From: Candidatus Altimarinota bacterium
GTDB taxonomy: Bacteria > Patescibacteriota > Gracilibacteria > BD1-5 > UBA6164
Direction: 5' to 3'
NCBI GenBank assembly: GCA_028691535.1
Contig: JAQUZB010000004.1
Coordinates: 52,745-116,744 of the forward strand
DNA: 64,000 bases
Positions 228-23,235 of the stretch are shown here, piece after piece; position 1 is the stretch's first letter; each line of letters begins with the position of its first letter. The notes below the pieces were generated by a model. That model was not told where the DNA came from, searched no databases, and was given only the letters and a program-made list of their open reading frames with translations. The position numbers were made by a program, and so were the translations under genes.

Positions 228-791
228 ATGGAAAAATTTTTGTCTCAAATAGTTGAATGAAATAAATTTGAATTAATTATCGATAAAAATTTATTTAATA
301 AAGATATAGTATTAAAAGCTGCATATAATTTTTTAGATAGAGGATATTTCTTTTTTAAATTAGACAAGAGTGAAAACATAACTTTAGTTTTTACAAAAAG
401 AGAAGAAAATTCTGAGAAAGTTGAGAATATAATTTCTGATTTTAGTGATGAATTATTATCAGTATATTTAAGAGATAAACTTGAAAGAGAAAATAAAACT
501 ATAAGAGAAACTATAGTTTCTCTTGCTATATCAAATAGTATTGATTCAAATAATTTTGTTGAAATGAATACTAATCTTCAAAATAATCAATGACAAAATC
601 AAATTGATTTTGATAAGGATATTGATGATATTTTAAGAGAAATCGAAAATGACCCTGAATTAAAAATTGATGAAGATGAAATTGAAAGGATCCTTAAAGA
701 AATAGAGGATGAATCAATTTTAGAAACTAAATCAGAAGTAAAACTAAATATTGATGGCTTGAAAAAGGCTAAAGAACAATTTAATAAATAG
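228..791 (+). CDS. hxsD: His-Xaa-Ser system protein HxsD-like
   Basis: The protein has 187 residues and two TGA glycines. Residues about 25-95 carry the HxsD pattern: an AAYNFLDRGYFF segment, then LLSVYLRDKLERENKTIRET, matching the family's LLNDYxLRE-type motif and the following ET-IRE helix. The HxsD domain is usually the whole protein (about 100 residues). Here residues about 105-187 add an acidic Asp/Glu/Ile-rich tail with no known domain. HxsD accompanies the radical-SAM maturases HxsB and HxsC; its role is not established, and a peptide-binding or scaffold role is an inference. It opens the cluster, directly followed by a small gene and hxsB. The start is the first ATG after the terminator. 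Confidence 0.75.
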
Positions 792-828
792 TTTCTTTAA
801 TATTTTGATAAAATTTAAACTTAAAAAT

Positions 829-1023
829 ATGAACAAAAGTTTTGAAGTAGATAAATATTTCTATCCTGTTGATTTAATTTCTATTTGAATAGATGATTTT
901 TCTGAAATTTCAACTATTAGTTTTAGTAATAATCTATTAACTATAGAATGAAATAATGAAGATGAAATAAATAACATATTTAATGAATTTATAAATTATA
1001 TTACTTGATTAATTAATGAATAG
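829..1023 (+). CDS. Small protein, possible degenerate second HxsD-like protein
   Basis: The protein has 64 residues with three TGA glycines, and its stop lies two bases before the hxsB start, so the two are surely co-transcribed. It opens with SFEVDKYFYPVDLIS, which recalls the VxxxxYPxxAI opening of HxsD proteins, and ends with NEFINYITGLINE, in the place of the LLNDYxLRE helix. It lacks the conserved central part. It could be a reduced HxsD, a peptide-recognition element or an unrelated small protein. The gene is certain from its position and frame; the relationship is weak. Confidence 0.6.
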
Positions 1024-1025
1024 AA

Positions 1026-2507
1026 ATGTTAAACATTGATAATTTAAAAAAAATAGATACAAATACTTGATTTTTCAGATTTAAGAAATTTTGAGATGAT
1101 TATCTAATAACAAATGATATAGCAAGATATTCATTTTTAACTAAAAATGAATTTTCTGATTTTATCTCAGGTAATATAAAAGAGTGAAAAAAATATACTG
1201 AATTATTAGAAAAAAAATTTATAAAGTGAGTGAATTACATAAATGACATGTCTTCTGCTTTTGCTTTAAAAAATAATTTTTTAGTATATTGACCATCACT
1301 TCATATAATAGTTACAACTCTTAGATGTAATCATAAATGCCAATATTGTCATGCGGCTGTTGCTCCAATGACTGCAAAAAATATGGATATGACAGAAGCT
1401 ACAGCAAAAAAAGTTGTTGATACTATTTTCTTTACAAGTAATCCAAGTTTAACTATTGAATTTCAATGATGAGAATCTCTTGTTAATTGGGATATTGTAA
1501 AGTATATAGTTGAATATGCTGAAAGTAGAGCATTACATTTAAAGAAAAATTTAACATTTGCACTTGTTTCAAATCTTTCACTTATGGATGATGAAAAATT
1601 AGAGTATTTAATTTCTCATAATGTTCAAATATCTACAAGTTTAGATTGAGATGAAGATACTCATAATTTTAATAGAACATTTAAAGAATGAAATAGTTTT
1701 GAAAAAGTATCATATTGGATTAAAAAAATTAATAAAGAATATGAAAATAAATGAATAAAAACTAAAGTTGGAGCACTATTAACAGTTACTAAAAAAACTC
1801 TAGATAGATATAAAGAGGTAATTGATACATATGTTTCATTATGATTAGATTGAATATTTTTAAGACCATTAAATCCATATTGATTTGCTGCTGCAGATTT
1901 AGAAAAATTAGGATATGAACCAAATGAATTTATTGATTTTTATAAAAAATCATTAGAATATATAATAGAACTGAATAAAAATTGAACAATATTTAAAGAA
2001 GCATTATCATCAATATATCTTTCAAAAATGCTTACTGAAAAAGATCCGAATTTCTTAGATGAAAGAAGTCCGTGTTGAGCGTGTATTTGACAAGTTGCAT
2101 ATAATTATGATTGAAAGATTTACTCTTGTGATGAGTGAAGAATGCTTTGAAGAATGTGAGATGATAATTTTCTAATGACAGAAGTTACAGAATCAGGTGC
2201 AGAGACTTATAAAAATATGATAGAAAGTGAAACTACAAAGATTATGGTTCAAGCATCAACTCTAGACTGATTACCATGATATAATGATAGTGTCTATAAA
2301 CCATATATTTGAGTATGTCCAATTCATAGTTATAAATTGAGTTGAAATATAATTCCAACTTATGCAAAAGATCATAAGAGAATACTTGATTATGCAGTAC
2401 TTGATTACTTATTTAATAAGATAAGAGTTGAAGAAGATAGAAAAGTATTTGAAAGATGGTTATGAATGGAAAACAATTTAGTTACTAGTCAGTGTGAATC
2501 TATTTAA
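1026..2507 (+). CDS. hxsB: His-Xaa-Ser system radical SAM maturase HxsB
   Basis: The protein has 493 residues, near the usual HxsB length of 450-480. The [4Fe-4S]/SAM motif CNHKCQYC sits at residues 101-108 after a TLR strand, and the GGES variant of the GGEP motif follows, encoded TGA-TGA. The C-terminal part has a SPASM-like cysteine set (SPCGACIGQ, then a YSCDEG motif and a late VCPIH), as in HxsB. HxsB is thought to modify the HxsA peptide with SAM and auxiliary iron-sulfur clusters; the chemistry is not fixed by sequence. It lies between the HxsD genes and the HxsA-type precursor, two bases after the previous stop. Identification is firm by motif and neighbourhood. Confidence 0.85.
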
Positions 2508-2537
2508 TATATAAAATATATTTATAATAATAAAATT

Positions 2538-2963
2538 ATGAATCAAAACAATAAAAAGCTTTTTCCAAAATTTAAAAAGAAATTGAAGTGATTTATCACT
2601 GATGAAAGTGGTAAAATTAGTAAGAAAGATGCTTTGTGATTAGCTGTTTGAGCTATGATTTTAAGTTGAGTTGATGAAGTCTGAGCGGCTATATCAAATT
2701 CTTCTAGTCCTGCTGTTTTACCTTATCCAGCTATCTCAGATTATGCTTGAGCTAATTATACTAATACAAATAATTTTACTATTATTAACTCAGCAACATG
2801 TAATCATTTTAGTTGAATAGTAAATTGACATTATAGCTGAACTTCATCAGTTAATTTATCTCAATCTCAAATACAATTAAATAGTCATGCAAGTCATGGT
2901 AGTCATGGTAGCCATGGTAGCCATGGTAGTCATGGTAGTCATGGTTCAGGTGGGTGGTGTTAA
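2538..2963 (+). CDS. hxsA: His-Xaa-Ser repeat protein HxsA (presumed modified precursor)
   Basis: The protein has 141 residues. Residues about 1-30 are basic and lead into ITDESGKISKKDALGLAVG, the SE-GKI-KK-x-GLG type opening of HxsA proteins. A hydrophobic stretch and a Ser/Asn/Thr-rich middle follow. The C-terminus is seven Ser-His-Xaa units (SHA once, SHG six times) and then SGGWC. This His-Xaa-Ser array is the feature the system is named for and is the likely substrate of the radical-SAM enzymes around it. Outside the array nine of ten glycines are TGA; in the array and tail all are GGT or GGG. No protease site is obvious. The gene lies directly after hxsB. Confidence 0.88.
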
Positions 2964-2993
2964 AAAATTATCTTATATTTTAATATATTTAGT

Positions 2994-3728: not shown

Positions 3729-3749
3729 ATATATTTTAATTATCTTTTA

Positions 3750-4886
3750 ATGATATTAAATGATTTTCAGAGTACTATATTAAAGAATTTCGATAAACAA
3801 ATATATTTTTCAAAAGTTCTAATTTGAGAAGAATGTCCTTTACGTTGTAAATATTGTTTTGTTGATAAAGAGAGTGAAAATATTATATCTTTAGAAACTC
3901 TATATAGATATATAGATTTGTTATTGTTTTCTCCTTGAAATGTAAAGTTATTACATTTATTATGATGAGAACCATTGTTGCACAAAAATATATTAAAAAG
4001 TTGAGTTTTATATGCCCGTAAAGTACAAAAATTTTTATGAAAAGATTTAACTATATCTTTTTGTACAAGTTGATTATTATTTGATGAAGATATATTAAAA
4101 TTTGTTTTAGAAAATGATATAAAATTAGCATGGAGTATTGATTGACCTCAACATATACATGATGATATGAGAATTTCTAAAACATGAGCATGAACTTATA
4201 AAAATGCAATAAAACATAAACATAAAGTTTTTTGATTAGTTCCAGATAGAAATTTATGATTAGCAATAGTTGTAAGTAATAAATTTGAAATTGCTAATAA
4301 TTTATTTGAAAGTTTTAAATATTTAGTTGAGGAAGAGTGATTTACTTCTATGCAAATTTCATCTGCTGATGGTGAACCATGGAGTAAAGCTTCTTTCAGA
4401 GTGTTCATAAAAAACTACATAAAAATTCATGAATATATATTAGAAAATATTGAAAAATGAAAGAAATTTATATATTTAAATACAATGAATAAAGAATTTC
4501 GTTATTGATTATTATCTACTCTTCGTCATGAGGAATGAAGATGTATCTGGTTTTATACAGATTGTTGGGTAAATTGAGATATAGTTTTTGATCCTTTTGT
4601 TCATAAAGATGATATGCATTCTAGAAATCATGTTGCTTGAAATGTTAATTCAGATACATTTATAAATGATGTTAATGAATATATTTGATGTACTTATAAG
4701 CAAAATTCTATGAATTGTATTAATTGTCATAAAAAATATTTCTCAAAAATTTCTATTAATAATCATGTTTTAAAATATAGAGATGAAGTTACTTTATTTT
4801 TTGCTAATAAGATTAAAAAATTAGCTGAAACTAATAAAATTTATAGAGATTATATTGATGAAGCAAAAGAACAAATGTATGTTTAA
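3750..4886 (+). CDS. Radical SAM protein with SPASM-like cysteine-rich C-terminus
   Basis: The protein has 378 residues. The CPLRCKYC cluster motif is at residues 29-36 and LLGGEPL follows, its glycines encoded by TGA. The C-terminal third has cysteines in CIWFYTDCW and CTYKQNSMNCINCHKKYF, suggesting one or two auxiliary clusters, as in anaerobic sulfatase-maturase and SPASM peptide modifiers. It is the last gene before the internal hairpin at 4911-4949. The substrate is unknown, but its place in the cluster suggests the HxsA peptide. It does not look like classical HxsC; that pattern is in the gene at 13751. Confidence 0.85.
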
Positions 4887-4960: not shown

Positions 4961-6064
4961 ATGACACAAATTAAATGAGCTTTCGCTATAAAATTACATG
5001 AATTATGTAATGAAAAATGTAGTTTTTGTTTTCAAGATAATGAAACAAGACATAAAAAATTTTGATTTGAAGATGAAAAAATTTTTCAAATTATTAATTA
5101 TGCATTTAAACAATGATATAAAATTATATATTTTACTTGATGAGAGCCATTAATTCATAAAAGTATTATTAAATTCATTAAATTTTCAAAAAAAATTTGA
5201 TTTGAATATATATACATACAGACTAATTGAGTTTTATTGTCAGATTATGATTTTGCAAAAAAATGTTATGATAGTTGAGCTACTATGTTTCATATTTCTT
5301 TACATCATAGTGATTCAAAAATCCATGATGAACTTGTTAATCTGCCTTGAGCATATGATAAAGTTTTAAAATGAATTCTTAATTTGCAAAAACTTTGAGC
5401 TTATCTTTGAATTCATATTGTTCTAAATAAGAAAAATTATAAAGATATATCAGATATAGTTAAATTTATTTTTTGAAAAGGGATTATAAATATTACTATT
5501 TTATTTCCAATAATACAATGAAGTATTATAAAAAATTATAATGAAGTATGAATAACATATAATGAAGTCATCCCTTATATTAAAGACACTTTTAGTCTTT
5601 ATTGAAATTTAACTTGAAAATATTTATATGTTATAAATATTCCACCATGTTTAATTAAATGATATGAAAAATATATAATAACTTGAATAAATAGTGTTTT
5701 GTTAGAGTTGAATTGAAAAAAAATAATTTATTTTGATGAAAAATCTACTTCTAATTACTATATTAATCATTGTTCTAGCTGTGATTATAGAAAAAAATGT
5801 CCTTGAGTAGATAAAGCATATTTAGATATTAATTGAGATGAAAAATTTTTAGACTTAGTTTTGAGTTTAGAAAATAAAAATACGAATAATGTACAGGATA
5901 ATAATTTTGTATCATTTATCCCTAGAAGTAATTTTTATAATAATTATTTATCAAATTTAATATTATCTAATCAATTTAGTATATCTCAAAATATGCCTAT
6001 AACCTGATTTGATGAATTAAACTTATTTAATAAACAAAATGTTTATAAAGAAATTTTTTTATAA
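4961..6064 (+). CDS. Radical SAM protein, close paralogue of the gene at 18283
   Basis: The protein has 367 residues, with the motif CNEKCSFC at residues 16-23, YFTGGEPL, a YIQTNG strand and SLHHSDSKIHDELVNLPGA. The same order and wording (LCNEKC, TGGEPL, QTNGV, LHHxxxxIHDxLVxLPGA) recur in the gene at 18283, so the two are duplicates that diverged. The C-terminus has HCSSCDYRKKCPGVDK, a CxxC-x5-C set for an auxiliary cluster. It begins the long second transcription unit. Its product is probably a modification of the cluster's peptide. Confidence 0.85.
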
Positions 6065-6078: not shown

Positions 6079-6768
6079 ATGAAAGAACTTTTTCTCAAGT
6101 TTGATAATTTTGATTCACTGGAATTCACATTATGAAATAATGATTTATCTGTAAATAAAATTTTATTTCAATATTTTAATTTAGAAAATAATCAAATTAA
6201 TATTTTAAATAATTTCAGAAATTTAATATCTTGAAAAAATCTTGTTTTTCTTGATTTTTTAGTAAATGAATTTTTAGACTCAAATATAAATTTTCATTTT
6301 TGAATAGATAAATCAAATAGTAGATATAAAATATTTATACCTTTATATAATATGGATTTTAAATATTGTTTAAAAAAGATTGTAAATATTAAAAATAAAT
6401 TATGAATTAAAAAATCATATAACTTAGAAAAAAATTTTTTAAAATTTGATTGTATATGATTTGATTTTAGAGATTGAGAAGTTGATTTTAAAGTTTATGA
6501 ATTAATAGAGGATAATAATTTTGATTTATTACCAGTAAATATATCAAACAATAATATTAAAGAACAATGATATTTAAAAACTTTTTGATGAAGAAGAAAA
6601 AAATTTTTTAGGTTTAATAATTATATAGATATTGATTCTTTTTCTATTTCTTTTAATACTGAAGTAATAAAAGAAATAGAAAAAGAAATAAATAATTATT
6701 ATATATTAAAAAATAAAGTAAAATATTATTGCATTGAGGGATGAAATGAAGAAATTTATTTTTTTTAA
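6079..6768 (+). CDS. Uncharacterised protein of the Hxs cluster
   Basis: The protein has 229 residues, is rich in Asn, Lys, Ile and Phe, and has no signal or membrane segment. I recognise no motif. Between residues about 150 and 185 lies a basic aromatic stretch (YLKTFGGRRKKFFRF), which could bind nucleotide or an acidic peptide. It lies 14 bases after a radical-SAM gene and 12 before another unknown gene. A dedicated peptide-recognition or scaffold protein is possible but only by position. Confidence 0.7.
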
Positions 6769-6780
6769 TAAAAATTTATA

Positions 6781-7416
6781 ATGTTAAGTAAACAATATTT
6801 AAATTTTTTAAATATATTTTGAAATACTTCTAATTGAGTATCTTGATTCTCTGATAATATAAATAGCTTTGAATTAGTTCTAAATATATTTAATCATATT
6901 GAAAATATAAGTGATTTTGAAAATTTTCGTAGAAATTTTCCGCCAGAATGGATTTATATACCAGCAGTAAGACTAGGAGATATAAAATTATGGGAATTAT
7001 TTTTTAATTATACATATGAATATCATATAAAAAATGATCAATCATTTGTAATAAGGATGAATGATATAAATATAAAAAATAAAATAGATTTTATTGATTA
7101 TATGTTAGATATATATAATAAAATATTAAGTTGATGATTAGAATATGATCCCTGGTCTGATATGTCAACTACATTTTGTAAAGAAAACATAACTAAAATT
7201 ATAAAAGAATATTGTTCTGAAAAAGTTATTAATGAATTTAATAACGATATGGAAATTCATCCAATTGAAAGAAGATGAGCAATAAATAAAGTATTATTCT
7301 ATCATGCAACTTTACAAAATAAATATGTAGATAAAATATTTGATGATTATAATGAATGAAAAAATACGAAAAGATTAGCAAAAGATTTTCTTAATTATTT
7401 AGATAAATTAAAATAA
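6781..7416 (+). CDS. Uncharacterised protein of the Hxs cluster
   Basis: The protein has 211 residues, soluble and mixed alpha/beta in appearance. A readable core is RRNFPPEWIYIPAVRLGDIK, and the C-terminal half has helices with YDPWSDMSTTFCKEN. No catalytic motif is clear. It is followed seven bases later by the 2OG-Fe(II) oxygenase gene, so it may act with it. It is cytoplasmic and of unknown function. Confidence 0.7.
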
Positions 7417-7423
7417 TTTTATT

Positions 7424-8197
7424 ATGAAAAATTTTATAAATAAAAAATATTTAAATAAAGTAGTTATAGATAAAATTTCTAAAGAATTTAATTCTAGAAA
7501 TCCAATATCATACTATGTTTTTGATGATTTTATAAAACCAGAAGTTTATAATTTAGTAGAGTCTGAATTATCATTAATAAAAGATTTTAATGTAATTGAT
7601 AAAAGAATAAATCATTTTATAAACAATAAAACTATACTTTTAAATTCTATAAATTTTTCTAAGTTATATAATTTTTTCATATCTGAAGATTTTGAAAATT
7701 TCCTCCAAATTATTTATAAAAAAGAGTTGAAAAAATATAGAAAAATTACTTCAGAGTTTCTTGAAGAAAAAATATGAATAAAAAAATCAGGAGTAGTTCA
7801 AATATATGAAAAATGAGATTTTATGTGATGGCATACTGATATAGCTAAAGATATGGAGAGAGAAAAATTATATAATAAATGATGATTTATTGAATGGGAT
7901 AAATGTATAGTAACTAAATTTGATGAAGTGGGGGCATTTATTTATTATATATATAATTCAGATAATAATTGGGATTCTTCAAAATGATGAGTTTTAGAAA
8001 TGTGAAAAATTGAATGAAATGATATAGTTCCATATAAAGAAGTTTTTCCATTAAGGAATAGATTAGTCATTATTAAGTCATCAAATAAATCGTATCATAG
8101 AGTTACTGAGGTTTTAGGTGATTTAGATTTTAGAGTTACAATTCAAGATTTGTTATTTAATAAATATGCTGAGATATGAGAAGAAATAATGTATTAG
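7424..8197 (+). CDS. 2OG-Fe(II) oxygenase (prolyl-hydroxylase-like)
   Basis: The protein has 257 residues. The N-terminal part has YYVFDDFIKPEVYNLVESEL, typical of the opening of prolyl 4-hydroxylase-like oxygenases. The facial triad reads His137-x-Asp139 (in MGWHTD) and His225 (in SYHRVTEV), with Arg237 in DFRVTIQD placed to bind 2-oxoglutarate. Such enzymes hydroxylate amino-acid side chains using O2 and 2-oxoglutarate. Oxygen use sits oddly beside many oxygen-sensitive radical-SAM enzymes. The reading frame overlaps the start of the next radical-SAM gene by 22 bases, which suggests translational coupling. Confidence 0.8.
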
Positions 8198-9915
8198 ATA
8201 TTTATATAACAGAAGTTTGTAATCTTAACTGTGAATATTGTTATGTTGATATTAAAAAAGTAGAATCTGATTGAGTTAATTCAAATGAATTTATTGAAAA
8301 AGTTTCATTACTTGATTATGATAATATAAGATTTTTATGATGAGAACCATTAATAAAATTTAATGAAATAAAAGATATAATTAATAGTGTTAAATCTAAA
8401 AATAATAAAATTCAATTTAGTATTATAACAAATTGAATTTTATTAAATGAAGAAAAATTAAATTATTTTAAATTAAATTCTGTTAGTATTGCAGTTTCAT
8501 TACATGATGAAGTTTTAAAAAAGTTTAGAGATGAAAATTTTTTAAAAATTTTATTAAAATATAAAGATAATATTGGTTTTATATTATTGATTAAATATAC
8601 TAAGGAAAAGTTAACAACTAAGATTTTTATTTTACTTTCAAATATGTGATTTAAAAATTTTTCAATTTCACCTATTACTTCAGATGAATGGAATAATTTA
8701 GAAAATTTAGAAAATGAGATTAAAATTATTATAAATCATATTTTTAATAATTCACATATAAATATCTCAGAAGCAAGTTGGACATATTTAAAAAATTTAA
8801 ATATTGATAAATTTTGTACAAGGGAACAAGTTGATAAAAAATGAGATAATAAACTTTGTAATAGATTTAGTAGTGAAGATTTTTTATCTAAAGGTACAAA
8901 TATATCAAAAATAAGAAAATTATTTAATGAAGTGAATAATTGTTCAAATTGTGAGGATAGATGGTTTTGTGTTTGTCCTTTTTGATGGTATATAGATAAT
9001 TTTTGAAATAAGATTGAGAATAATGAAATCAAAATAAAAAATTTCCATAAACTTAACAAAGCATTTATTAAGTTTTATAAAGAAATTTCTAATATCAGAT
9101 GAAATAAAAATTTTCTTACAAAAAATATTGATGAAATTAGATTTAATTTAACAAATCAATGTAATTTAAGATGTGATTATTGTTATCTTAAATTTGATAA
9201 TGAAAAATTAGATTTAAGTGTTTGAAAAAATATAATTGATTATTATTTAGAACAAGAGTGAAATAATAAAATAATTTCTTTTTTTTGATGAGAACCTTTA
9301 TTAGAATTTAAACTTTTAGAAGAGCTTGTAGAATATGCTAATATAAAATCTAAATTTTTAAATAAAAATATTTCATTTAAGATTGCAACTAATTTAATAT
9401 TATTAAATGATAAGATAATTGATTTTTTATTAATTAATAATTTTGATCTACATATTTCTTTTAATTGAAAATGAAATATAAATGATATTACAAGAGATAA
9501 TAGTACAAAAATATTATTATCTAAGATAGATTTGTTGAAATCAAAAAATTTTAATTTTGAAAAAATTGTTATTTTAAATGTAATATTTCCACATACAATT
9601 TCATATATATGAGAAAATTTAACTTATTTTGAATTATTGTGATTTAAAAACATAAATTTTGAAATATATTTATGAAATAAATATATTTGGACTAGAACAG
9701 ATATAAATTCATTATATGATGAATTTAAAAAACAAAAAAATCTTTGAATATTGGATAAGCTAAATATAATTAATTATATTTCAAGTTTGAATAAATATAC
9801 TTTTTTAGATATTTCAACTTCTTGAAAAATAAGTGAAAATTCATTAATTTTTTTTAATGATAATATTGATTTTTCACCTAAGTTAGAATTAAATAATATT
9901 TTTAAAAATTTATAA
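8176..9915 (+). CDS. Tandem (double) radical SAM protein
   Basis: The protein has 579 residues with two complete radical-SAM domains. The first motif is CNLNCEYC at residues 15-22 with FLGGEPL; the second is CNLRCDYC at 329-336 with FFGGEPL. Between them lies a cysteine-rich section (CTREQ, LCNRFS, CSNCEDRWFCVCPFG), consistent with auxiliary clusters closing the first domain. The second half has no matching cysteine tail. The ATG lies inside the preceding oxygenase gene. A fusion of two modification activities on one chain is the natural reading; the order of reactions is unknown. Confidence 0.87.
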
Positions 9916-9917
9916 TT

Positions 9918-13220: not shown

Positions 13221-13222
13221 AT

Positions 13223-13732
13223 ATGAACATAGATTATTTTGAAACTGAGGATTATAAAAAATCTCTTTTAGAGACTTTAAAATCATTTAATGATTGAATA
13301 ACAGATGAAAAATTATTATATATAATAAAAAATCTTGTTGTATTTAATAATTTTGAATTTGAAAATAATAAAAATATTAAATTATTACTATTTTATTATT
13401 TTTATTTAAAATGAGGTGTAGAATTTGATAATTGATATAAATTTAGTTTTAATAATAATTTAGATTTAAATTTAAATAAATTATTAAATATTAATAATAC
13501 ACAATTATCTAATTTTAAACAATATTTTGATTTTTGAAAAAATGAGATTTTTTTAAATAAAATAATTGATTTAACAGTATTAAGTAGAGAAGTAAATGCT
13601 GATAAAAAAATAGTTGATGTAGATAATATAATTGATTTTTTCTTTTGTTTCACAAAAGAATGTTCTGAATTATATTCATTCTCGTGAGAACATTTTCCAT
13701 TATTTAAATGGTTAATTAATGATGTTGTTTAA
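13223..13732 (+). CDS. Uncharacterised small protein of the Hxs cluster
   Basis: The protein has 169 residues, acidic and Asn/Leu/Phe-rich, starting two bases after the preceding stop. It is probably all-helical, with no signal or membrane segment and no recognised motif. It precedes the HxsC-like fusion gene by 18 bases. Function unknown. Confidence 0.65.
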
Positions 13733-13750: not shown

Positions 13751-15649
13751 ATGCCAGATATAGCTTTATGGCCAAATTGTGATCATAAGTGTACTATGTG
13801 CTCTAATGATGCTAATTATAAAGATACAACTTCAAAATATACATATGAGGTTATAAAAACAAGGATAGATAATTATTTTTGATGAGATGATAGAAATTTT
13901 CATCGTTTTCCTGATATGAAATCTGATTGGACAATAACATGATGAGAACCAACTTTAAATCCAAAATATTTTGAGATTTTGTCTTATATTAGAGAAAAAT
14001 TTCCTGAATCAAAACTAATCCAATTAACACATTGAGATAGGTTTTCTGATGTAGAATTTACAAAAAAAATCTCATCACTTGAAAATTATCATCTAGTTTT
14101 TCCAGTACATTGATATAATAAATTAACTCATGAAGCAATAGTTAGAAAATCAGGTTCTTGGGATGAATTAGTTAAATGAATTTTTAATGTTTTGAAGTAT
14201 AAAAAATATAATAATCAAACTTTAGAGTTGAGATTAATAATTCAAGGTCAAAATTATAAATTTTTAGATAAGATGTATGAATTTATTTATAAATATTTTC
14301 CTTGAGTTGATAGTGTTGTAACAATAATGATGGAATTTGAAGGTCAAGCAATTGATAATATTTGAGTTACAAAAGTAAATTATAAAGATGTATTAGATGT
14401 CAATGAAAGTGTATTTTTAAAATGGTGAGAAATATTTTGAGTAAATAAGTTTAAATTATACCATTTTCCATTATGTACACTTAAAAATCCTAGATTATGG
14501 AAATATATGTGGAGAACTCTACCTAGTCATGAAATAACTTTTACATGAAAATGTTCTTTATGTAAATTATCTAAATATTGTATGTGAATACATGAATCTT
14601 ATTGTGATTTTAATTGAAATGAAGAAATAAAACCTTTTTTTAAAAAAGATAGCAATAAAATTAAAATTATTGAAAATAAAGATAATTTTAGATTTAATCC
14701 AATTTTAGATGTAGTCACTAATAATAAACCAAGTAAAAAAACAGTTATATTTACATGATATGCTTGTGATAATATATGTAGATTTTGTATAGATTTAAAT
14801 AAAAGAAATATTAATAGAACAACTAAAGAAGTTTTAAAAGATATATTGTTGGCAAAAAAAAGCTGAACTCAAATCTTAGAAATTATTTGATGAGAGGTGA
14901 CTATAAGAAAAGATTTTTTTACAATTATGTGATTTATAAAATCTATGAAATTTGAACATGTATATCTTGTTACAAATTGAAATAAAATGTCAGATTATAA
15001 TTTTGCAAAGAAATTTTATGAACTTGATGTTTTAAATAGTATTGTATTTTCAATTCATTGATCAACAGCTGAAATACATAATTTACTTACTGCAACTCCT
15101 AAAAGTTTTGAAAAACTACTTCAATGAATTAAAAATTGGCAAGATTTATGATTTCCTAAAAGTAAAATCTGAACAAATACTGCAATCGAAAATTGAAATT
15201 ATGCTGATTTAGTAAATATTTGAAAATTAATTAAAGAAATTTGATGTTTATGAACTAGTGAATTTATATTTGCTGATCCAAATCAATGATGAGTAAATAA
15301 TGAATTTGAAAAATTAATGCCTAGAATTTCAAAAGCAGCACCTTATATGAGAGATCTTATAAATTGGTGAAATAATAATTGAATGATTTATAGAGTTAGA
15401 TATGTTCCACTATGTTATTTTTCTGAATATATGGATAATAACATTTCTGAAATTAAAGAATTAGAAATTTATAGTAATGTTACACATAGTGCTCCTGATT
15501 TTTTTAACTCAGATGTTGTTGAATGAAGAAAAAATAGTTGAAGAGTAAAAACAAAAAAATGTGAATGATGTAAATTATACGATAAATGTGAATGAATATG
15601 GAAAACATATTATGAAAAATGGTGAGATGAGGAATTAATTAATTTATAA
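13751..15649 (+). CDS. HxsC-like radical SAM maturase fused to a second radical SAM domain
   Basis: The protein has 632 residues. The first domain has CDHKCTMC at residues 10-17, TGGEPTL, a VFPVHGYN strand, and a late section with LYHFPLCTL, WKYMWRTL and CSLCKLSKYCMGI. This follows the order of HxsC (CxxxCxMC, GGEPTL, a late YNxxLC, then a CxxCxxxxxCxG tail). The second domain has CDNICRFC at 339-346, IGGEVTI in place of GGEP, and its own cysteine tail (CEGCKLYDKCEGI). I therefore take it as the cluster's HxsC with an added radical-SAM module. Full-length HxsC is normally a single-domain protein of about 350 residues. Confidence 0.8.
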
Positions 15650-15669: not shown

Positions 15670-16206
15670 ATGTTTTTAGATAATAATCATCCATTGTATA
15701 ATGATTTAATTAATTTTATTAATTCTTCTTTGGAAAATAAAAAATGGTATGATGACAATATTGAAAAAATATTATTGGTAGAAGATTGAATAAAATTAGA
15801 TAGTTTAATATTTGATATATATGATTTAAAAACTATTCCAAACAATAAAGATATATGGGAAAATAAATGATATATATATTTTTCATTTGATGCTGCAAAT
15901 ACTTATGCAAAGTGATTAAATAAAAGATTACCTACAAGAGATGAGTGGAAAAAATTTGTAAATTTTTTACCTTGAAAAATAGAAAATAAAGTTAAATTTT
16001 TTACAGATGTTATGAAATTTCCACTTTCATGATTTCGTTGTCGGGATAATTGATTTTTTTGTAATTTCTGAGATGATTGTTGATATTGGTCAAGTTCTGA
16101 AACTTCAACACATGCTTATAATCTTCATTTTAAGTCTAAATTTATAAATCCAAATGACTTTGATTTTAAAGAAATCTGATTTTTAGTTCGTTGTTTAAAA
16201 AATTAA
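15670..16206 (+). CDS. FISUMP-domain (Fibrobacter major paralogous domain-like) protein
   Basis: The protein has 178 residues. Residues about 75-178 follow the FISUMP pattern: a LNKRLPTRDEWKKF opening, FPLSGFRCRDNG, GYWSSSETSTHAYNLHF and a final IGFLVRCLKN. This fold is related to formylglycine-generating-enzyme and C-type-lectin-like domains. The family is normally secreted, but this copy has no signal peptide and lies between a radical-SAM and a YcaO gene, so it probably acts in the cytoplasm. Peptide binding is a reasonable guess. Confidence 0.7.
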
Positions 16207-16209: not shown

Positions 16210-17421
16210 ATGAAAAAAGGTTATAAATTAGATACACATAGAGTGTGTGATCCAAAAATAACTGTTAAAAATGTATTGGAAAAACTTAAGTCTTCATTAA
16301 TTTGGGATGATGAAAATGTTTCATTGTATCAAATATGAAATTTAGATGTTTTTAATGAGTATGTTTATTGCGTTTCATCATACGTATGAAAAAGAAATAA
16401 TTGGTGAAAATGACTTACCAAATATCAAGCAATGGCTAGTGCTTTGATGGAATTTTGTGAAAGATATTCATGGTATAAAAAAATTTATGAAGTAAATGAT
16501 AGCGAACAAAAAACTCATAATGAAATTGAATCAAAAAAAATTAATGTTGATGAATTAATATTAACAGATAATGATAGAGAAAGATTTAGTAAGATAGATT
16601 TTTATAATGATGTTAAATATAATTGGATTGAATGATATTCTTTAACAAATAGTGAAAAAAAGTTAATTCCATGGTATGAACAAGAATTTCTTACAACAAA
16701 TTGTTTATGAGCAGGAAATACATTGGAAGAGGCAATAATTCATGCTATTTATGAGACTATTGAAAGACATAATTACAATGTTATGATGGCTAATTATGAT
16801 ATTCCAAAGATAATTAATATAGATACAATTACGAATTCTAATATTTTAAATCTGATAGAAAAAATAAAGTCTTTTTGATTTGAAATATATATAATGGATT
16901 GTTCTTTTGATTTCTGAGTTCATACAATTTGAGCTTTGATATATAATTGAAAATATCAGTATGTAAGTCATTATGCTATGAATTTACATATGTGAACTCA
17001 TTCAAATAAAGATATAGCAATTATTAGAGCATTAACTGAAATTATACAAAATAGAGCAACAAATATAGATAATAATAAATTTGATATTTCTAGGATAAAA
17101 AAAGAGGATTATATGTATGAAAATGATTTATCACCAATAACAAATTTTTATTTAAGTACATTTAGGACTTGAAAAACAGAAGTTATAAATTACAATGATT
17201 TAAAAGATACTGATACAGATGATATGTCATTTGAATTATCTTATATTGTAGAGGATTTGAAAAATAATTGATTTGAAGTTTTAGTTATTGATATAACAGA
17301 TGAAAAACTAGATGTAAAATGCGTGAGAGTAGTTATTCCATGATTACAACCAATGATTTTTGAATTATTTGATGATTTATCGTCAAAAGATATTAGATTT
17401 TCTAAATTTATAAAAAGATAA
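16210..17421 (+). CDS. YcaO-domain protein (ATP-dependent peptide backbone modification)
   Basis: The protein has 403 residues. It opens with DTHRVCDPKITVKNVLEKL, the thRtxxPxxTl start of YcaO proteins related to the methanogenesis-marker-1 (McrA thioglycine) group. Residues about 70-90 read GKGLTKYQAMASALMEFCER, the SxKGxxxxQAxxSAlmEaiER ATP-binding motif; a second ER motif (YETIERHN) and TEIIQNR follow. YcaO enzymes activate a backbone amide with ATP to make azolines, thioamides or amidines. No E1-like cyclodehydratase partner or TfuA is seen, but a SufS-like enzyme in the same operon could supply sulfur, which favours a thioamide; this is inference. Confidence 0.85.
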
Positions 17422-17424: not shown

Positions 17425-18273
17425 ATGTCAAAATTAGACCACCTTGTACCAATTAATAATGTTTGTAATCAAAAATGTGTTTTTTGTAGTGCTGAATATC
17501 GTATGCAATGAAATAAACCAATTCCTTTAAAAAATATTTTTAAAGATATTTTAGAAAAGTGAGACTATATTCAAATCTCTTGAGGAGAACCATTATTAAG
17601 TCCAGATCTTTTTAAAATACTTTTTTTTATTAGAAAACATAAAAAAAAGTGTTTTATTGAGTTTCAAACAAATGGTGTTTTTTTGTTGAAAAATAATAAT
17701 TTAGATAAATTACAAAAATTTAATATAGATTTATATAACGTAAATTATCCATGTCACATTGAAGAAATTAATGATGAAATTGCCTGAGTAAAATGAAGTC
17801 AAACGCTTAGAGAATTAGCAATGAAAGAAATAATAAATAGATGATTAAATTTAAGAATAAATATAATAATTAATAAATTAAATTTTATATATTTGCCTGA
17901 AATTGTAGATTATATAAATGAAAATTTCGCTTGATTAGATAGAATTCAATTTAGTTTTACAAAAGCTATGTGAGCTGCTGATAAAAATGATGAAGTTGTT
18001 CCATTGTATGAAGAAACAGAAAAATTTTTAATTAATGCATTAGAAAAGTGTGAAAAATATAATATTAAAGTTGATGTTGATCATATTCCAATGTGTTTTT
18101 TATGAAAATATTATGAAAAACATGTTGATTTTAACAAGATGAAAATGTGAGAAAATTGAGTTTTTTTAACAGAAAAAAATTATGTAAATAGATGTAATAA
18201 TTGTGATAAAAAGAATTATTGTACTTGATATAGAAAAGACTATTTAGAAATTTACACAGAATCTATAATTTAA
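17425..18273 (+). CDS. Short radical SAM protein
   Basis: The protein has 282 residues, with CNQKCVFC at residues 14-21, ISGGEPLL (one Gly as GGA) and FQTNG. The end has RCNNCDKKNYCTGY, a CxxC-x5-C set for one auxiliary cluster. It is close in layout to the genes at 4961 and 18283 but shorter. It starts three bases after the YcaO stop, so the two may act together. Confidence 0.85.
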
Positions 18274-18282
18274 AAAAAAATT

Positions 18283-19542
18283 ATGTTAGAAAATCTAATT
18301 AAAAAATGAATTAAAAAATCAGATTTAGAATTAAGAGATGAAATACTTTCTTGAACTAAAGATAAAAAAGAAATTTATAAAAATAGTTGTTATGAAGTTA
18401 TGGTTCATAAGCTTTGTAATGAAAAATGTTTTTTTTGTAGTCAAGATCATGAAAGTAGAACTAAGGCAGAGAAACCAAATGATAATGAAATATATAAAAG
18501 AATTTTATTTTGAGCTAAACAATGATATTGAATGCTTGGTTTTACATGATGAGAACCTTTAACTCACCCAAATATAATGAAATATATTAAATTTGGTAGA
18601 AAAGCATGATTTAACTATGTTAGGGTTCAAACTAATTGAGTAATGTTATGAAAACCTTGATTTGCAGATAAGTGTGTTGATGCGTGAGCAACTCTTTTTA
18701 AATTATCTGTTCATCATTATAAACCTGAAATTCATGATTATCTAGTTTGATTACCATGAGCATTAGATAAGGTAATATATTGAATAAAAGAGTTGAAGAA
18801 AAAATGATCTAGGATTTGAATCAATATTGTACTTACAAAACAAAATTATAAAGATTTACCAGATATTTTGTTATATTATTTAGATCTTTGAATAACTGTT
18901 TTTGTTGTAATTTTTCCATTGTATGAAAATAGTATGAAAGATGAAGCAAAATTAGTTTGATTTAAATTTACAGATACAATTCCATATATTGTTAAATCAT
19001 TGCACATTTTTGATAAACTATGACTAAAAAGACCATTAGTTTTAAATATGCCAATGTGTTTATTACCATGATATGAATCTGCTATAATTCAAACTTTTAA
19101 TTGAACAGCAGTTTTAAATCTGGATTGAAGTAAGACAAATATAGATGATAATAAAGCTTGATGAAAAAAGAGAGTTAAGATTTGTAAAGATTGTAAACAT
19201 AACAAGATTTGTTTTTGAGTAGATGAAGAATATATTAAAAATTGGTGAGAAAGTGAGTTTGAATCTAAAATGGAAAATATTGATTTATCATTTAGTTTAG
19301 ATGAACTAAATTTAAAAGAATATTTTACGGAAGATGAATTATGTTTTTTAGAAATTTTAAATGTTAAAGATAAAGTTTGAGTTGAAGATATAATTAAAAT
19401 AAAAGATAAAATACAAATTTGTCAGGATTGTGATAGCTTAAACAAGATCATTTCTACTTGAGATTTACTTGTAAAAAAATGATATATTAAAAAAGAATTG
19501 GTGAAATGAAAAATTATTTTTAGTAAAATAATGTCAAAATAA
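18283..19542 (+). CDS. Radical SAM protein with C-terminal extension, paralogue of the gene at 4961
   Basis: The protein has 419 residues. A helical N-terminal extension (about 40 residues) precedes CNEKCFFC at residues 45-52 and GFTGGEPL. VQTNGVML and SVHHYKPEIHDYLVGLPGA match the gene at 4961. The auxiliary cysteines are in ICKDCKHNKICFGVDEE. Residues about 345-419 add a small domain with ICQDCDS, possibly winged-helix-like or a peptide-recognition element, absent from the paralogue. Confidence 0.84.
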
Positions 19543-19549
19543 TAATATT

Positions 19550-20767
19550 ATGTTACAAAAAGATTATCCATTATTATCAAAAAAGATTAATAATAAAAAT
19601 TTAATTTATTTTGATAGTTCGTGTACATATTTAAAAAATATCAATACTATTAATGAAGTTAATAGATATTATACTGATTATTCTTGTTGTTCAGGAGATA
19701 GGGAATCATCTTATTTATGAGCATTATTACAAGAAGAAATTGATAATACTAGAGCTCAATGTAGTAAATTTATATGAGCTCAAAAAAATGATTTCATTGT
19801 ATTTACATCTTGAACTACTGATTCTATAAATAGACTTATTTTTTCAATAGATGAAAGCAAAATAAAAAATATCATTACTTCTGACTTAGAGCATAATTCA
19901 AATTATTTACCACAATTTGAATATTCTAAAATAAAGAATATAAATTTTGTTTGTTTTAAATACAAAGATATCTTAAATTTAGATATTTTAGAAACTAAAT
20001 TAGAAAAAATAACTGGATGATTTTTATTATGTTTTACACATTGTTCAAATATAATTTGATCAAATTTTGATTTGCAATGAATTTCTGAATTAGTACACAA
20101 ATATTGATGATATATTTTGGTTGATGATGCACAATTTATATCTCATAATAGAGAAAATGTAGTATTAAATAATATAGATTTTCTAGCTTTTTCTGCTCAT
20201 AAAATTTGATGACCTACTTGAATTTGAGTGCTCTATATAAAATATTGAAGTGAAAATATAATAAAATATAGTTCAAAAATTTGATGAGGAACTATTATAA
20301 ATATAAATAATGAAAAAGTAGAATATAAAAAATTACCATATTTTTTAGAATGATGAGTTCAAAATTTTTGATGAATTTTATGATTAAAATGATGTATAAA
20401 TTATTATAATGAAATCTCATATGAAAAAATAAATACTCATATAAACATTTTAGTTAAGTATTTTTGGAATAAATTTTATGAAAATAATTTAGATAATTAT
20501 TTTGAAATATTAAGTTTGGATAATTCATTAATAATTACATTGAAACCTAAAAATTTTAATGTAATTGATTTTCACTGATATTGTAATTATTTTTTAGATG
20601 AATATATTATTTCATTTAGAACATGAACAATGTGTGCTGATAATTATGTAAATAACTATTTAAATTGAGATAAAAATATAATGAGATTATCATTTTGAGT
20701 TTATAATACTACTGAAGAAATAGACGTATTAATAATTTCTATTTTAAAATATATAAGAGATATCTAG
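19550..20767 (+). CDS. Class V aminotransferase, cysteine desulfurase (SufS/Csd)-like
   Basis: The protein has 405 residues with a fold-type I PLP enzyme layout: TSGTTDSIN, DLEHNSNYLP, ILVDDAQ and the PLP-binding Lys218 in FSAHKIGGPTGIGVLY. Cys362 in RTGTMC occupies the place of the SufS persulfide cysteine (RxGxxC). It is thus probably active as a cysteine desulfurase delivering sulfane sulfur. As the last gene of the maturase operon it could feed the YcaO reaction or rebuild iron-sulfur clusters of the radical-SAM enzymes. Its tail overlaps the convergent A24 peptidase gene by four bases. Confidence 0.82.
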
Positions 20768-20790
20768 TTATAGATATCTCTTATATATTT
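20749..20790. terminator. Bidirectional terminator at the end of the maturase operon
   Basis: TATAAGAGATATCT and AGATATCTCTTATA flank a seven-base loop and are followed by a T-rich stretch on the plus strand and A-rich sequence on the other. It closes two convergent genes whose stop codons lie inside it. Confidence 0.8.
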
Positions 20791-22062
20791 TATTATTAAG
20801 TTAATAATAACTTCAAATATTTTATTACCAAATATAAATGTAATTAAAAATCATAATAATATATATGGTCAAAATGCAAAAATTTTTAATATTTTTATAT
20901 GATTTAATTCTGTAAATTTTTCTTTTATTATTTCATCATTTTTAGATACTTCATTTGTTCTTAAAAATACAGTATTTATTTTTGTTATATCCTCTTCTGT
21001 TACAACTCTATTTATCGATTTTATATTTTTTAAATTTTCATTATAAATATTTATTGTATCTAAATTTTTAGGATTAATTATTTTTATAATTTTTGTTATA
21101 TATTCTTTATCTATTATATCTCAAATTTTTATATTATCTAGTGTTACAAAATAACTTTCAGCAATTTGAAAAGTTATCTTGTAACTGTATCTAAAAATAT
21201 TAAATAATATATATAATAATAGATATATTGTAAATATTTTATATAAACTATTTTTTAAAAATTCACTATCTATTTTGTATTCATATAAGATAAATCAAAA
21301 TAATAAGGATAATAATATAATATAGATTATTATATCAATATATTTATAATATATTTGATTAATTGATATCTTTTTTATAAAAATATAAATTAACCTTAAT
21401 AACATTATACTCAATAATATAATTACTATAGAAGATATGATTATTAATATTTGATATTTATTAAATAAGTCAAAATAATTTAAATCTTTCATTAGGTAAA
21501 TTCTACTTATTCTTAATCATACAAAAAGTATTCAGAAAGTTATGAAAAATTTTATTAATCTTAAAAAAATTGTCTTAATATAAAAATTTCAATCTCAAAA
21601 TTTAAAAAATGTTGTGAGTTTTTCTTTTAAATCTTCTTTTATATTAATTAATAGACTTTTAGCATATTTTCTATCAAATAGACATTTTCATAAATAGAAC
21701 CAAACAAAATATAACATTAAATATATTAAAGTTATTATTGCTATATTTCATACAAATGAAATTATTCAAATATATGGAATGAATAGTGCTAATACAAGCA
21801 AATATTTAGCATCTCAAGCGCTCCATATTCAAATTGAATATAATAAAAAAGATAAAAATAAAGTTATAACAACTTGAAAAAGAAAAAATAGAAAATTTAT
21901 ATCAAAATAATAAAAAACATAAATATAATAAATTGGTAATAATATTAATAAATATAATAAATATTTATTTGGAATTTTTTTTTCTTTTATATCAGAAATT
22001 ATTATCTTATAGTTTATATATAAAAATGGTATTGATAATATAAAAAGCAAAATATATTGCAT
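20764..22062 (-). CDS. A24 family prepilin-peptidase-like membrane protease with extra C-terminal domain
   Basis: The protein has 432 residues. The N-terminal membrane domain has the two A24 aspartates: Asp24 in ISDIKEKKIPN and Asp84 in SAGDAKYLL (the GxGD-type motif with Ala for the first Gly). A24 enzymes cut leader peptides of type IV pilin-like proteins. They are usually about 220-260 residues. Here several further membrane segments, a soluble stretch of about 100 residues and a last membrane helix follow. It could process the pilin-like protein at 62155 or serve the cluster; the extension is unexplained. The C-terminus overlaps the convergent PLP-enzyme gene by four bases. Confidence 0.78.
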
Positions 22063-22113
22063 ATTTTTTTATTAGATTATAATTTTTTATATTATATACT
22101 CATTATCATTTTT

Positions 22114-23235
22114 ATGAAATTAAATTATTATGTTTTATGAATTGAAAACAATTTAATGCTTTCTAATTATTTAGATAAATATTATGATTTACTTATTTCT
22201 TATTTATTAAAATTATCAGAAAATACTATTTTAACTTATGAAATTAATGAATTATTAAAAATTGATAATAGAGATTTTATATTAAATCCAGATTATTCAT
22301 CAATAATAAATTTATTATATAAAGAATTAATAAAAAAAATACCACAAAATATAAATAATATTGATAAATATATCGATATTTTTAAAAATGAAATTAAATT
22401 ATTTCTATCGTGAGATATTAATAATTTAATTTGTAATAAGTGAAAAAATATTTCTTGAACAAATATCAAATTAACATTATCAGATTCTAATCCATATAAC
22501 ATATTAGAAGATCATCCTGAACATAAAACAAATTGAGCTTGATTATGATGGTGAGAAAAATCAGAAGAGGAGTGGTTATTTATATATGAAAAAACATTTG
22601 ATTTGCTGAAAAAAGTTGATAAATGAATTTATAGTGAGTTAAATAAAATTATAAAAAAAATAATTCCATTAGGAACATCAAAGTGAGTTCATAATTCTTG
22701 TTCATATAAAGATTGTATTGGTCATTTATATTTATGATATACTTATGATGTATCTAATCCAGAAATTAATAATTTAGAAGCTATAATTCATGAATCTAGC
22801 CATAATAAATTAAATCTTATTATGCAATTTGATCCAATATTATTAAATTCAAGAGAAGAAAAATATTATTCAGCAATTAGACCTGATGCGAGGCATATTC
22901 AATGAGTTTTTATTTGATATCATGCCTTTGCACCTACTATGTATATTTTGATGAAAGCATATAGAGATTGATTATTTTGAAATGATTCATATTGGCTTGA
23001 AAAAATAGTTTTATATCATATTAAGACTAAATTTTTACAAAAAGTTATAAAAAAATATGCAAAACTTACTGAATTATGAAAAAATATTTCGGAAGAAATT
23101 GATTATGTAATAACTTTAATGGATGAAATGTTTAAAGAATTAAAGCCATCAAAAGAAATAATAGAAAGGGCTAGAAAAAGACAAATAGAGCATTTTAAAA
23201 AAGTAAATATGACTTATCCTAATCTAGAATATTAA
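22114..23235 (+). CDS. HExxH peptide-modification-associated protein
   Basis: The protein has 373 residues. The core is AIIHESSHNKLNLIM with His226-Glu227-x-x-His230, preceded by a SCSYKDCIGHLYLGY segment and followed by YYSAIRPDARHIQGVFIGYHAFAP (quoted here in part: IRPDARHIQG). This is the layout of the HEXXH domain family found in RiPP and radical-SAM clusters, where the motif holds a metal; some members are described as 2-oxoglutarate-dependent peptide beta-hydroxylases rather than proteases. It stands divergent to the A24 peptidase and right beside the Hxs cluster, so it likely works on the same peptide. It has no signal peptide. Confidence 0.78.

What the first reader, a model, noticed from the sequence alone, without database searches (positions are those of the whole stretch)
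228..23235. A maximal His-Xaa-Ser peptide-modification cluster in a reduced CPR-type genome
The window holds HxsD-like, HxsB, HxsA-type and HxsC-like genes, normally a compact four-gene system, together with seven further radical-SAM domains, a 2OG-Fe oxygenase, YcaO, cysteine desulfurase-like, FISUMP, TPR-like, HExxH and unknown proteins. Roughly twenty consecutive genes seem to serve one small peptide family. I know of no Hxs cluster of this size or in this lineage, and so much dedicated enzymology in a small genome implies an important product, perhaps used against or on a host cell.
Basis: partly seen in the sequence, partly recalled or inferred. Interest (0 to 1): 0.95.

Follow-up and report, generated by a model that had tools for sequence, protein, structure and literature searches.

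The report
Swappable peptide-tailoring island in Gracilibacteria
In a tiny-genome bacterium related to Gracilibacteria, the one gene for a His-Ser-repeat peptide sits in a 25-kb chromosomal slot with 17 further genes, mostly enzymes predicted to modify that peptide, and the same slot in four same-genus relatives, as far as it could be read, holds no counterpart of any of these 17, so the slot likely works as an exchangeable kit for a changeable secreted or surface molecule.

Summary
Read with TGA=Gly, window 228-25767 carries HxsD and HxsB above NCBI cut-offs, an HxsA-type His-Xaa-Ser precursor and HxsC-like genes below theirs, 10 Radical_SAM domains in 8 genes, YcaO, a 2OG oxygenase and a HExxH peptide hydroxylase. 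It is neither maximal nor unique: 35 of 60 related genomes (own included) have HxsB over cut-off, and some islands are larger. New is the architecture: a recurrent frame (hxsD, hxsD-like, hxsB, hxsA left; A24 peptidase, HExxH, large predicted exported protein right), here between the ATP-synthase operon and rpoD, encloses cargo that turns over. G000 shares none of its 17 cargo genes with four same-genus islands (one complete, three partly read); HxsB is 60% identical between genomes with 98% identical AtpD; one congener has a 62-bp empty site. Cargo elsewhere includes a nitrogenase-like module, halogenases and glycosyltransferases. HxsA keeps its leader while its middle segment changes even where HxsB is 90% identical. 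One genus (g4) keeps its cargo, and shared cargo does not follow the HxsA segment, so action of all cargo on HxsA remains inferred. Best reading: an exported, heavily modified peptide whose modification kit is swapped much as capsule loci are.

The parts
228..791 (+). hxsD
   Evidence: TIGR03976 58.8 bits, cut-off 50 met; 36-77% identical to the 28 homologues aligned
754..1023 (+). hxsD-like small protein (start 751 TTG or 754)
   Evidence: NF038315 23.1 bits, below 41; homologues at the same place in many loci
1026..2507 (+). hxsB radical SAM/SPASM maturase
   Evidence: TIGR03978 497 bits, cut-off 370 met; nearest solved structure by sequence 5wgg
2538..2963 (+). hxsA precursor: conserved leader, V/A-x-A-like site, variable segment, HFSGIVNGHYS motif, HGS repeats, GGWC end
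   Evidence: NF038313 44.7 bits, below 55; alignment of 27; only copy found in the genome
2994..3728 (+). companion: N-terminally anchored (predicted) Cys-containing protein next to hxsA
   Evidence: such a protein at position 1-3 after hxsA in 19 of 24 loci
3750..4886 (+). radical SAM, PapB-like (below cut-off)
   Evidence: PF04055 52 bits; NF047865 123.7 of 340
4961..6064 (+). radical SAM, HxsC-like (below cut-off)
   Evidence: TIGR03977 105.7 of 267.9
6079..6768 (+). unknown
   Evidence: no family; 45% homologue in the G031 stretch
6781..7416 (+). unknown
   Evidence: no family
7424..8197 (+). 2OG-Fe(II) oxygenase
   Evidence: PF13661 and PF13640 cut-offs met
8176..9915 (+). double radical SAM
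   Evidence: two PF04055 stretches; homologues in G031 (41%) and G017 (47%)
9918..11168 (+). radical SAM
   Evidence: PF04055 39.5 bits
11168..12343 (+). TPR-like
   Evidence: TPR_2 20.6 bits, below 27
12324..13220 (+). TPR
   Evidence: TPR_17 28.1 bits, cut-off 24.4 met
13211..13732 (+). unknown
   Evidence: 43% homologue in the G022 island
13751..15649 (+). double HxsC/HxsC4-like radical SAM
   Evidence: TIGR03977 201.5 of 267.9; 74% homologue in G022, another genus
15670..16206 (+). FISUMP/Lcl_C-like, weak
   Evidence: 24 bits, below 41.65
16210..17421 (+). YcaO
   Evidence: PF02624 204 bits; best NCBIfam TIGR03266, below cut-off
17425..18273 (+). radical SAM, HxsC-like (below cut-off)
   Evidence: TIGR03977 96.8 of 267.9
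18283..19542 (+). radical SAM, HxsC4/HxsC-like (below cut-off)
   Evidence: NF038332 100.4 of 500
19550..20767 (+). SufS-family class-V aminotransferase
   Evidence: PF00266 218 bits; TIGR01979 249 of 475.1
20764..22062 (-). A24 prepilin-type peptidase, right frame
   Evidence: PF01478 30.9 bits, cut-off 26.5 met; only hit in the genome
22114..23235 (+). aKG-HExxH-type peptide hydroxylase, right frame (TTG start at 22057 also possible)
   Evidence: TIGR04267 53.4 bits, cut-off 40 met
23305..25767 (+). large protein with signal-peptide-like start, right frame ('surf')
   Evidence: no family; homologue on the right side in 18 of 22 readable right ends

Best explanation
The window holds a 25.5-kb island in which a recurrent Hxs frame (hxsD, hxsD-like, hxsB and hxsA on the left; A24 peptidase, HExxH hydroxylase and a large predicted exported protein on the right) encloses 17 genes, none of which has a counterpart in the islands of four same-genus relatives as far as these could be read, and which likely builds one exported, heavily modified His-Xaa-Ser peptide. 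Proposed mechanism: HxsB, with HxsD, modifies the His-Xaa-Ser repeats of HxsA (inferred from family); the exchangeable cargo (radical SAMs, YcaO, 2OG oxygenase, and in other genomes a nitrogenase-like reductase, halogenases, carbamoyltransferases, glycosyltransferases) adds genome-specific chemistry (inferred); the leader is cut at the conserved V/A-x-A-like site and the peptide leaves the cytoplasm (inferred from the signal-peptide-like leader); it then acts outside the cell together with the envelope-anchored companion encoded next to hxsA (inferred). The frame persists while allele exchange swaps both the kit and the HxsA middle segment, much as capsule or O-antigen loci switch type (pattern shown, purpose inferred).
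For: Frame: of 22 loci whose right end could be read, A24 is in 16, HExxH in 12, surf on the right side in 18, sigma-70 right flank in 10. Turnover: G000 shares 0 of 17 cargo genes (reciprocal best hits >=35% identity, >=60% coverage) with each of G002, G003, G004 and G005, of which 18, 5, 16 and 25 cargo genes were read and only G005's island is complete, although AtpD is 93-96% identical; a 74%-identical cargo gene sits instead in another genus (G022). Allele exchange: G002/G004 AtpD 98%, HxsB 60%; the HxsB tree rejects the genus as one clade (AU p=4e-56) while the AtpD tree has it as one side of a branch. Empty site: G001 has atpC and sigma-70 62 bp apart. One precursor: copy number 1 in 32 of the 35 genomes that have HxsA; no room in this operon for another of its size. 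HxsA: leader 77-93% identical but no detectable segment similarity (z<=1.3) in the five pairs with HxsB 89-90% identical. Companion at position 1-3 after hxsA in 19 of 24 loci, following cargo (Mantel r=0.54, p=1e-4).
Against: HxsA-segment similarity does not correlate with shared cargo (22 loci, r=0.04, p=0.36), so a direct enzyme-segment match is not seen. Turnover is not universal: genus g4 keeps most cargo (15 of 17, 15 of 17, 20 of 24), and of ten pairs in the window's genus six share 0 and the others 1, 3, 4 and 9 genes. G033/G026 (HxsB 83%) do share their HxsA segment (z 17). A right-end radical SAM pair (about 421 and 314 aa) recurs in many loci. The right frame is incomplete in about half of the readable loci and lacking on the right side in G034 and G030; in G013 HxsB and HxsA lie on different contigs. 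Some cargo (GDP-mannose dehydratase, glycosyltransferases) suits sugars better than peptides. Export, cleavage, modification and display are untested; surf also occurs in some genomes without HxsB.
Confidence: 0.5

Rival explanations
1. The slot is a hotspot for mixed biosynthetic genes: Hxs modifies HxsA alone, and the cargo makes something else (a glycan, lipid or small molecule) that has nothing to do with HxsA.
For: No correlation between HxsA segment and cargo; sugar-nucleotide, glycosyltransferase, carbamoyltransferase and halogenase genes in other islands.
Against: 230 of 384 cargo genes carry the CxxxCxxC motif; in G000 most of the radical SAM genes score best against HxsC- or PapB-type peptide maturases, though below cut-off; cargo is in one operon directly behind hxsA; the seven genomes with a NifH-type gene all have HxsB.
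Confidence: 0.25
2. The product is a secreted antagonistic peptide (bacteriocin-like or used on prey or host cells), and the envelope-anchored companion next to hxsA is its immunity protein.
For: Envelope-anchored (predicted) divergent protein at position 1-3 after the precursor in 19 of 24 loci; allele turnover.
Against: The companion follows cargo, not the HxsA segment: 2 of 13 homologous companion pairs have similar segments; no transporter family in G000's Pfam scans or among the 25 families listed (of 45) for 66 other cargo representatives.
Confidence: 0.2
3. The differences are binning or assembly artefacts of metagenome genomes.
For: Many are drafts in dozens to hundreds of contigs; several islands run off contig ends.
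Against: Islands lie in long contigs with housekeeping genes beside them: G022 has a 1.34-Mb contig, G005 a 971-kb contig, and G000 has atp and rpoD/dnaG in the same contig.
Confidence: 0.03

Closest known systems
Canonical His-Xaa-Ser (Hxs) system (NCBIfam TIGR03976-TIGR03978; founding paper recalled, not held)
   Same: HxsD and HxsB over cut-off, HxS-repeat precursor, HxsC-like radical SAMs.
   Different: An example on Sphingobium plasmid pTK1 is hxsB and hxsC behind two small unnamed genes, about 3.2 kb in all (L157 4349-7564); here 25.5 kb, no HxsC over cut-off, exchangeable cargo.
HxsA3/HxsA4/HxsC4 variants in NCBIfam (NF038309, NF038313, NF038332)
   Same: 23 of 25 precursors match HxsA3 and 17 of 25 HxsA4 at E<=1e-3 (25 of my 27); HxsC4-like genes present.
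   Different: G000's precursor and HxsC4-like genes are below those cut-offs; the one-line descriptions I saw say nothing of an exchangeable island.
Compact Hxs loci in distant families of the phylum (G576, G510)
   Same: hxsD, a small protein where hxsD-like sits, hxsB and HxS precursors with a related leader.
   Different: Four CxxxCxxC genes each in the stretch listed (G510's ends at the contig end); HxsB without in-frame TGA; two precursors side by side in G576; none of the right frame among the genes listed.
Capsule / O-antigen loci (recalled)
   Same: Fixed slot, conserved flanks, exchanged middle, allele switching.
   Different: Built round a ribosomal precursor and radical SAM enzymes instead of a sugar polymer pathway.
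Prochloron patellamide family (recalled; PMC3062557 seen only in a search listing)
   Same: Hypervariable peptide product in close relatives.
   Different: There, as I recall, the enzymes are constant and the core varies; here enzymes and core both vary.

Membership tests
Hxs system | HxsB (TIGR03978) over cut-off | tested here: met
   497 bits, cut-off 370
Hxs system | HxsD (TIGR03976) over cut-off | tested here: met
   58.8 bits, cut-off 50
Hxs system | HxsA with His-Xaa-Ser repeats | tested here: inconclusive
   repeats plain, but 44.7 bits below HxsA4 cut-off 55 and 27.4 below HxsA3 cut-off 65
Hxs system | HxsC (TIGR03977) over cut-off | tested here: not met
   best 201.5 over two domains, cut-off 267.9
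RiPP | ribosomal precursor with conserved leader next to modifying enzymes | tested here: met
RiPP | modified product | not testable with these tools
   needs mass spectrometry
RiPP | PqqD-type RRE in HxsD | tested here: inconclusive
   model pLDDT 72.9; Foldseek against PDB gave no match at E<=0.001 and no PqqD among the 50 rows shown
Exchangeable capsule-type locus | fixed flanks, empty and alternative alleles | tested here: met
   within the window's genus and part of its family; elsewhere in the order the flanks differ
Exchangeable capsule-type locus | surface-exposed product | not testable with these tools
   leader resembles a signal peptide only
Nitrogenase-like reductase (in relatives, not in G000) | NifH family with both cluster-ligand Cys and a NifD/K-type partner | tested here: met
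   PF00142 282 bits, PF00148 92 bits; Cys of CAGRG and VVCGG invariant in 5 of 5 (ligand role recalled)

The most novel reading that the evidence does not exclude
Gracilibacteria carry a peptide counterpart of the O-antigen locus: a chromosomal slot where a constant Hxs engine displays one ribosomal peptide whose chemistry is re-specified by swapping a 6-30-gene enzyme kit, including the first nitrogenase-like reductase that acts on a peptide.
Probability: 0.25. Interest if true: 0.95.

Novelty: new variant of a known kind. Interest (0 to 1): 0.82.

Why it matters
Reduced CPR genomes are thought to make little chemistry of their own; here one slot holds more than half of the over-cut-off radical SAM domains found in the genome (10 of 18). 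The turnover gives a natural combinatorial library of peptide-modifying enzymes, a nitrogenase-like module in a new setting, and a testable idea of how such bacteria vary what they show to hosts, prey or phages. The open question of what Hxs systems make becomes approachable through many natural variants of one precursor.

Tried and rejected
Tested and failed: correlation of HxsA segment with cargo (the segment was cut there by a rough rule, last Ala near the site; one search used a fixed cut). HxsD as an RRE by fold: no support. HxsD by sequence in PDB: only chance-level matches. A24 as a marker of Hxs: it also occurs in genomes without HxsB over cut-off, mostly outside family f1. surf as strictly Hxs-linked: its C-terminal domain is widespread and long matches occur in G006, G015, G016 and G028, which lack HxsB over cut-off. 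A resemblance of the HxsA leader to Flp-pilin leaders (FL.DESG, recalled) was considered and not pursued: the Glu expected after the cut is not there.

Control for the empty site: of the 25 genomes without HxsB over cut-off I searched 23 for AtpD (G032 and G053, with partial HxsB, left out; 22 had it), and read 20 atp neighbourhoods, some cut short by contig ends. Only G001 has atpC next to sigma-70; the other 19 show other genes there, and none shows hxsD, hxsB or hxsA.

Literature: 'His-Xaa-Ser' is in 3 open papers; Absconditabacteria + radical SAM in none; HxsA/B/C names, Gracilibacteria + BGC + RiPP, Patescibacteria + RiPP + radical SAM, CPR + RiPP, nitrogenase-like + RiPP and hypervariable clusters list no title that describes this island. 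Of these I saw the abstract and passages of PMC9062424 and passages of PMC12153355 and PMC8692599, the rest as listings only. Subscription papers and preprints are not held.

Rows left out: cargo and HxsA sets cover 27 of 36 HxsB-bearing stretches (those where an ORF with at least three HxS lay near HxsB, so the repeat is selected for); G031's hxsA was missed by my ORF caller (one search finds it). G057 (partial HxsB) is not in the HxsB tree. Loci with fewer than 6 cargo genes were left out of the Mantel test (22 of 27 kept). Cargo genes under 90 aa are not counted. G034's cargo was cut at its last radical SAM gene before the Mantel test. Of 87 non-radical-SAM representatives 66 were scanned together; part of the rest were scanned, some not at all. 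Homology below 35% identity or 60% coverage counts as not shared; weak radical SAM family resemblance (20-34%) runs through all islands. The companion count has no background control.
Full report
What is there. The window is G000 contig C14 52745-116744 of a 1.26-Mb draft genome, 94% complete. It needs TGA read as glycine. Twenty-one genes run on the + strand from 228 to 20767 with hardly any gaps, followed by a minus-strand A24 peptidase, a HExxH peptide hydroxylase and an 820-aa protein with a signal-peptide-like start; then come sigma-70 and DnaG on the minus strand. To the left is the ATP synthase operon, whose atpC ends at window position 140. HxsD, HxsB and the HExxH hydroxylase pass NCBI's cut-offs; HxsA, HxsC, HxsC4 and the HxsD-like gene do not. 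Ten of the 18 over-cut-off Radical_SAM domains found in the genome lie in the island.

The precursor. One HxsA is found in the genome. I aligned 27 precursors, picked because they have at least three HxS and lie near HxsB. The build is shared, with exceptions: a lysine-rich leader close to FPKhKKKhKGFLTDESGKISKKDALGL, a hydrophobic stretch ending at a small-x-Ala site, a variable segment with scattered HxS/HxN, a central motif close to HASGIVNGHYS, and a run of HGS repeats (nearly lost in G024, HSS in G017) ending mostly in W, R or Y. 164 relatives were found in the large protein database; none of the 120 listed has a recorded Pfam domain, and 113 of those 120 have at least four HxS. Export by a signal peptide is my inference from the leader.

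The frame and the slot. Of 60 genomes (own included), 35 have HxsB over cut-off and 35 have HxsA; 33 have both, two only HxsB (G038, G057), two only HxsA (G006, and G032, which has HxsB fragments). In a sample of the class 26 of 242 genomes (own included) were over cut-off, all in two families of one order; in a sample of the phylum 3 of 379, own included. Of the 15 loci with a full AtpD, 14 have the operon on the left of hxsD or hxsB with at most three genes between; in G013 it follows HxsB. Of 22 loci with a readable right end, A24 is in 16, HExxH in 12, surf on the right side in 18, and sigma-70 follows in 10; G034 and G030 have none of the three there. Both flanks are read in six loci (G000, G005, G008, G011, G022, and G019 with a partial AtpD). 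Elsewhere in the order the frame has other neighbours, so the atp-rpoD slot is a feature of part of family f1. In G001, a congener in which neither HxsB nor HxsA was found, atpC and sigma-70 are 62 bp apart and the genes beyond keep much of the window's order; its AtpD and AtpC are 98.5% identical to those of G003, which has an island. So the block from hxsD to surf can be absent as a unit. Of 20 atp neighbourhoods read in genomes without HxsB over cut-off, only G001 shows this clean empty site.

The cargo. Between hxsA and the right frame, the 14 loci in which a right-frame or sigma-70 gene closes the run carry 6 to 25 genes of at least 90 aa (G000: 17); one G027 contig has 33 before its A24. 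In all, 384 cargo genes in 27 loci, 230 with a CxxxCxxC motif. G000 shares none of its 17 with G002, G003, G004 or G005 (18, 5, 16 and 25 cargo genes read; only G005 complete, G004's on a contig assigned by gene content), but shares three with G022 (one at 74%) and one with G017, both other genera; in a comparison of whole stretches it also shares three with G031. G005 shares 0.72 of the smaller set with G052 of another family. Against this, the three g4 genomes keep most of theirs, G004 and G005 share 9, and a right-end radical SAM pair recurs. Other islands hold carbamoyltransferase, NifH and NifD/K-type proteins, PPDK_N, DegT, asparagine synthase, a glycosyltransferase fusion, tryptophan halogenase, sugar-nucleotide enzymes and methyltransferases (one search scanned 66 of 87 representatives and lists 25 of 45 families). 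NifH-type genes are in 7 of 60 genomes, all seven with HxsB over cut-off: on the HxsB contig in G009, G034 and G054; on other contigs rich in radical SAM genes in G027 (whose contig ends in A24-HExxH-surf-sigma-70), G020 and G004; on a small separate contig in G029.

Exchange. AtpD and HxsB disagree: G002 and G004 are 98% identical in AtpD and 60% in HxsB. The HxsB tree (35 rows) puts G000, G004, G005 and G002, G003 far apart and rejects the genus as a clade (AU p=4e-56) and the eight f2 rows as a clade (p=2e-5). In the AtpD tree (27 rows, quick method) the six congeners form one side of a branch, support 88, not starred. Over all 15 AtpD loci the two identities still correlate (Spearman 0.45). 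GC is 0.17 in the cargo stretch 6079-13732 and 0.145 in A24, 0.19 in HExxH, against 0.24-0.26 in hxsD-B-A, surf and the flanks.

What varies together. Among the five pairs with HxsB 89-90% identical the HxsA segment before the central motif has no detectable similarity (z<=1.3), while G002 and G011, 56% identical in HxsB, have nearly the same segment (z 36); G033 and G026 (HxsB 83%) share theirs (z 17); 18 of 351 pairs have z>4. Shared cargo correlates neither with the HxsA segment (r=0.04, p=0.36) nor with HxsB (r=0.14, p=0.19) (22 loci). A small, predicted envelope-anchored, Cys-containing protein lies at position 1-3 after hxsA in 19 of the 24 loci with at least three cargo genes; its homology follows cargo (13 homologous pairs, mean share 0.56; 158 others, 0.11; Mantel r=0.54, p=1e-4) and hardly the HxsA segment (2 of 13 against 8 of 158 with z>4). 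The 13 pairs come from few groups, one of them a single genus.

Reading. Shown: an Hxs frame with turnover of cargo, of HxsA segment and of HxsB allele in the same slot within one genus. Inferred: that cargo enzymes modify HxsA, that the peptide is exported and cut, and that variation serves recognition by hosts, prey or phages. The null correlation between segment and cargo means that either cargo works on the constant parts (central motif, HGS run), or some of it works on something else. I put 0.5 on the main reading.

Compared with the known. An annotated Hxs locus on Sphingobium plasmid pTK1 is hxsB and hxsC behind two small unnamed genes, about 3.2 kb; Hxs loci in two distant families of the phylum show four CxxxCxxC genes each in the stretch listed, and HxS-repeat precursors with a related leader. 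The island is therefore a new variant of a known kind; the nitrogenase-like module inside such a locus is, as far as the searches named reach, undescribed.

Noticed in passing
L009:10987-13692 (G000:C14:44486-47191), upstream of the window: A 901-aa ORF in the ATP synthase operon consists of 12 tandem c-subunit hairpins, each with the ALVE[SV][AV]AIYGL carboxylate motif at 75-77 aa spacing: a c-ring apparently made as one polypeptide; repeat assembly not checked.
   Followed up: partly
L080:13955-17654, L034:14861-17714 and next gene, L051:14080-18499, L089:11100-16900 region: Nitrogenase-like module (NifH type plus NifD/K types) inside Hxs islands or island-like contigs of CPR genomes.
   Followed up: partly
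G026:C16:19630-21006 (L046): A second, divergent HxsB (363 bits, just below cut-off) in G026 next to a surf-like protein.
   Followed up: no
L149 and L150 (G006): G006 has two HxsA-like genes and, beside one of them, a HExxH-surf right end close to sigma-70, but no HxsB over cut-off: perhaps a decayed or split island.
   Followed up: no
G025:C116:662-1036 and 7373-7747: G025 carries two further HxsA-like genes on another contig.
   Followed up: no
window 20764-22062: The island's A24 peptidase is the only one found in a genome with seven over-cut-off type II/IV secretion-type ATPase matches and eight PilC-type domains, and it has the lowest GC of the pieces measured (0.145).
   Followed up: partly
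AtpD of G039, G044, G045, G048, G049, G050, G055, G058: No in-frame TGA in AtpD of eight relatives of families f2 and f3, against 13-28 in the eight f1 relatives and 32 in one f2 relative (G041) of the same call: use of TGA as glycine differs strongly within one order.
   Followed up: no
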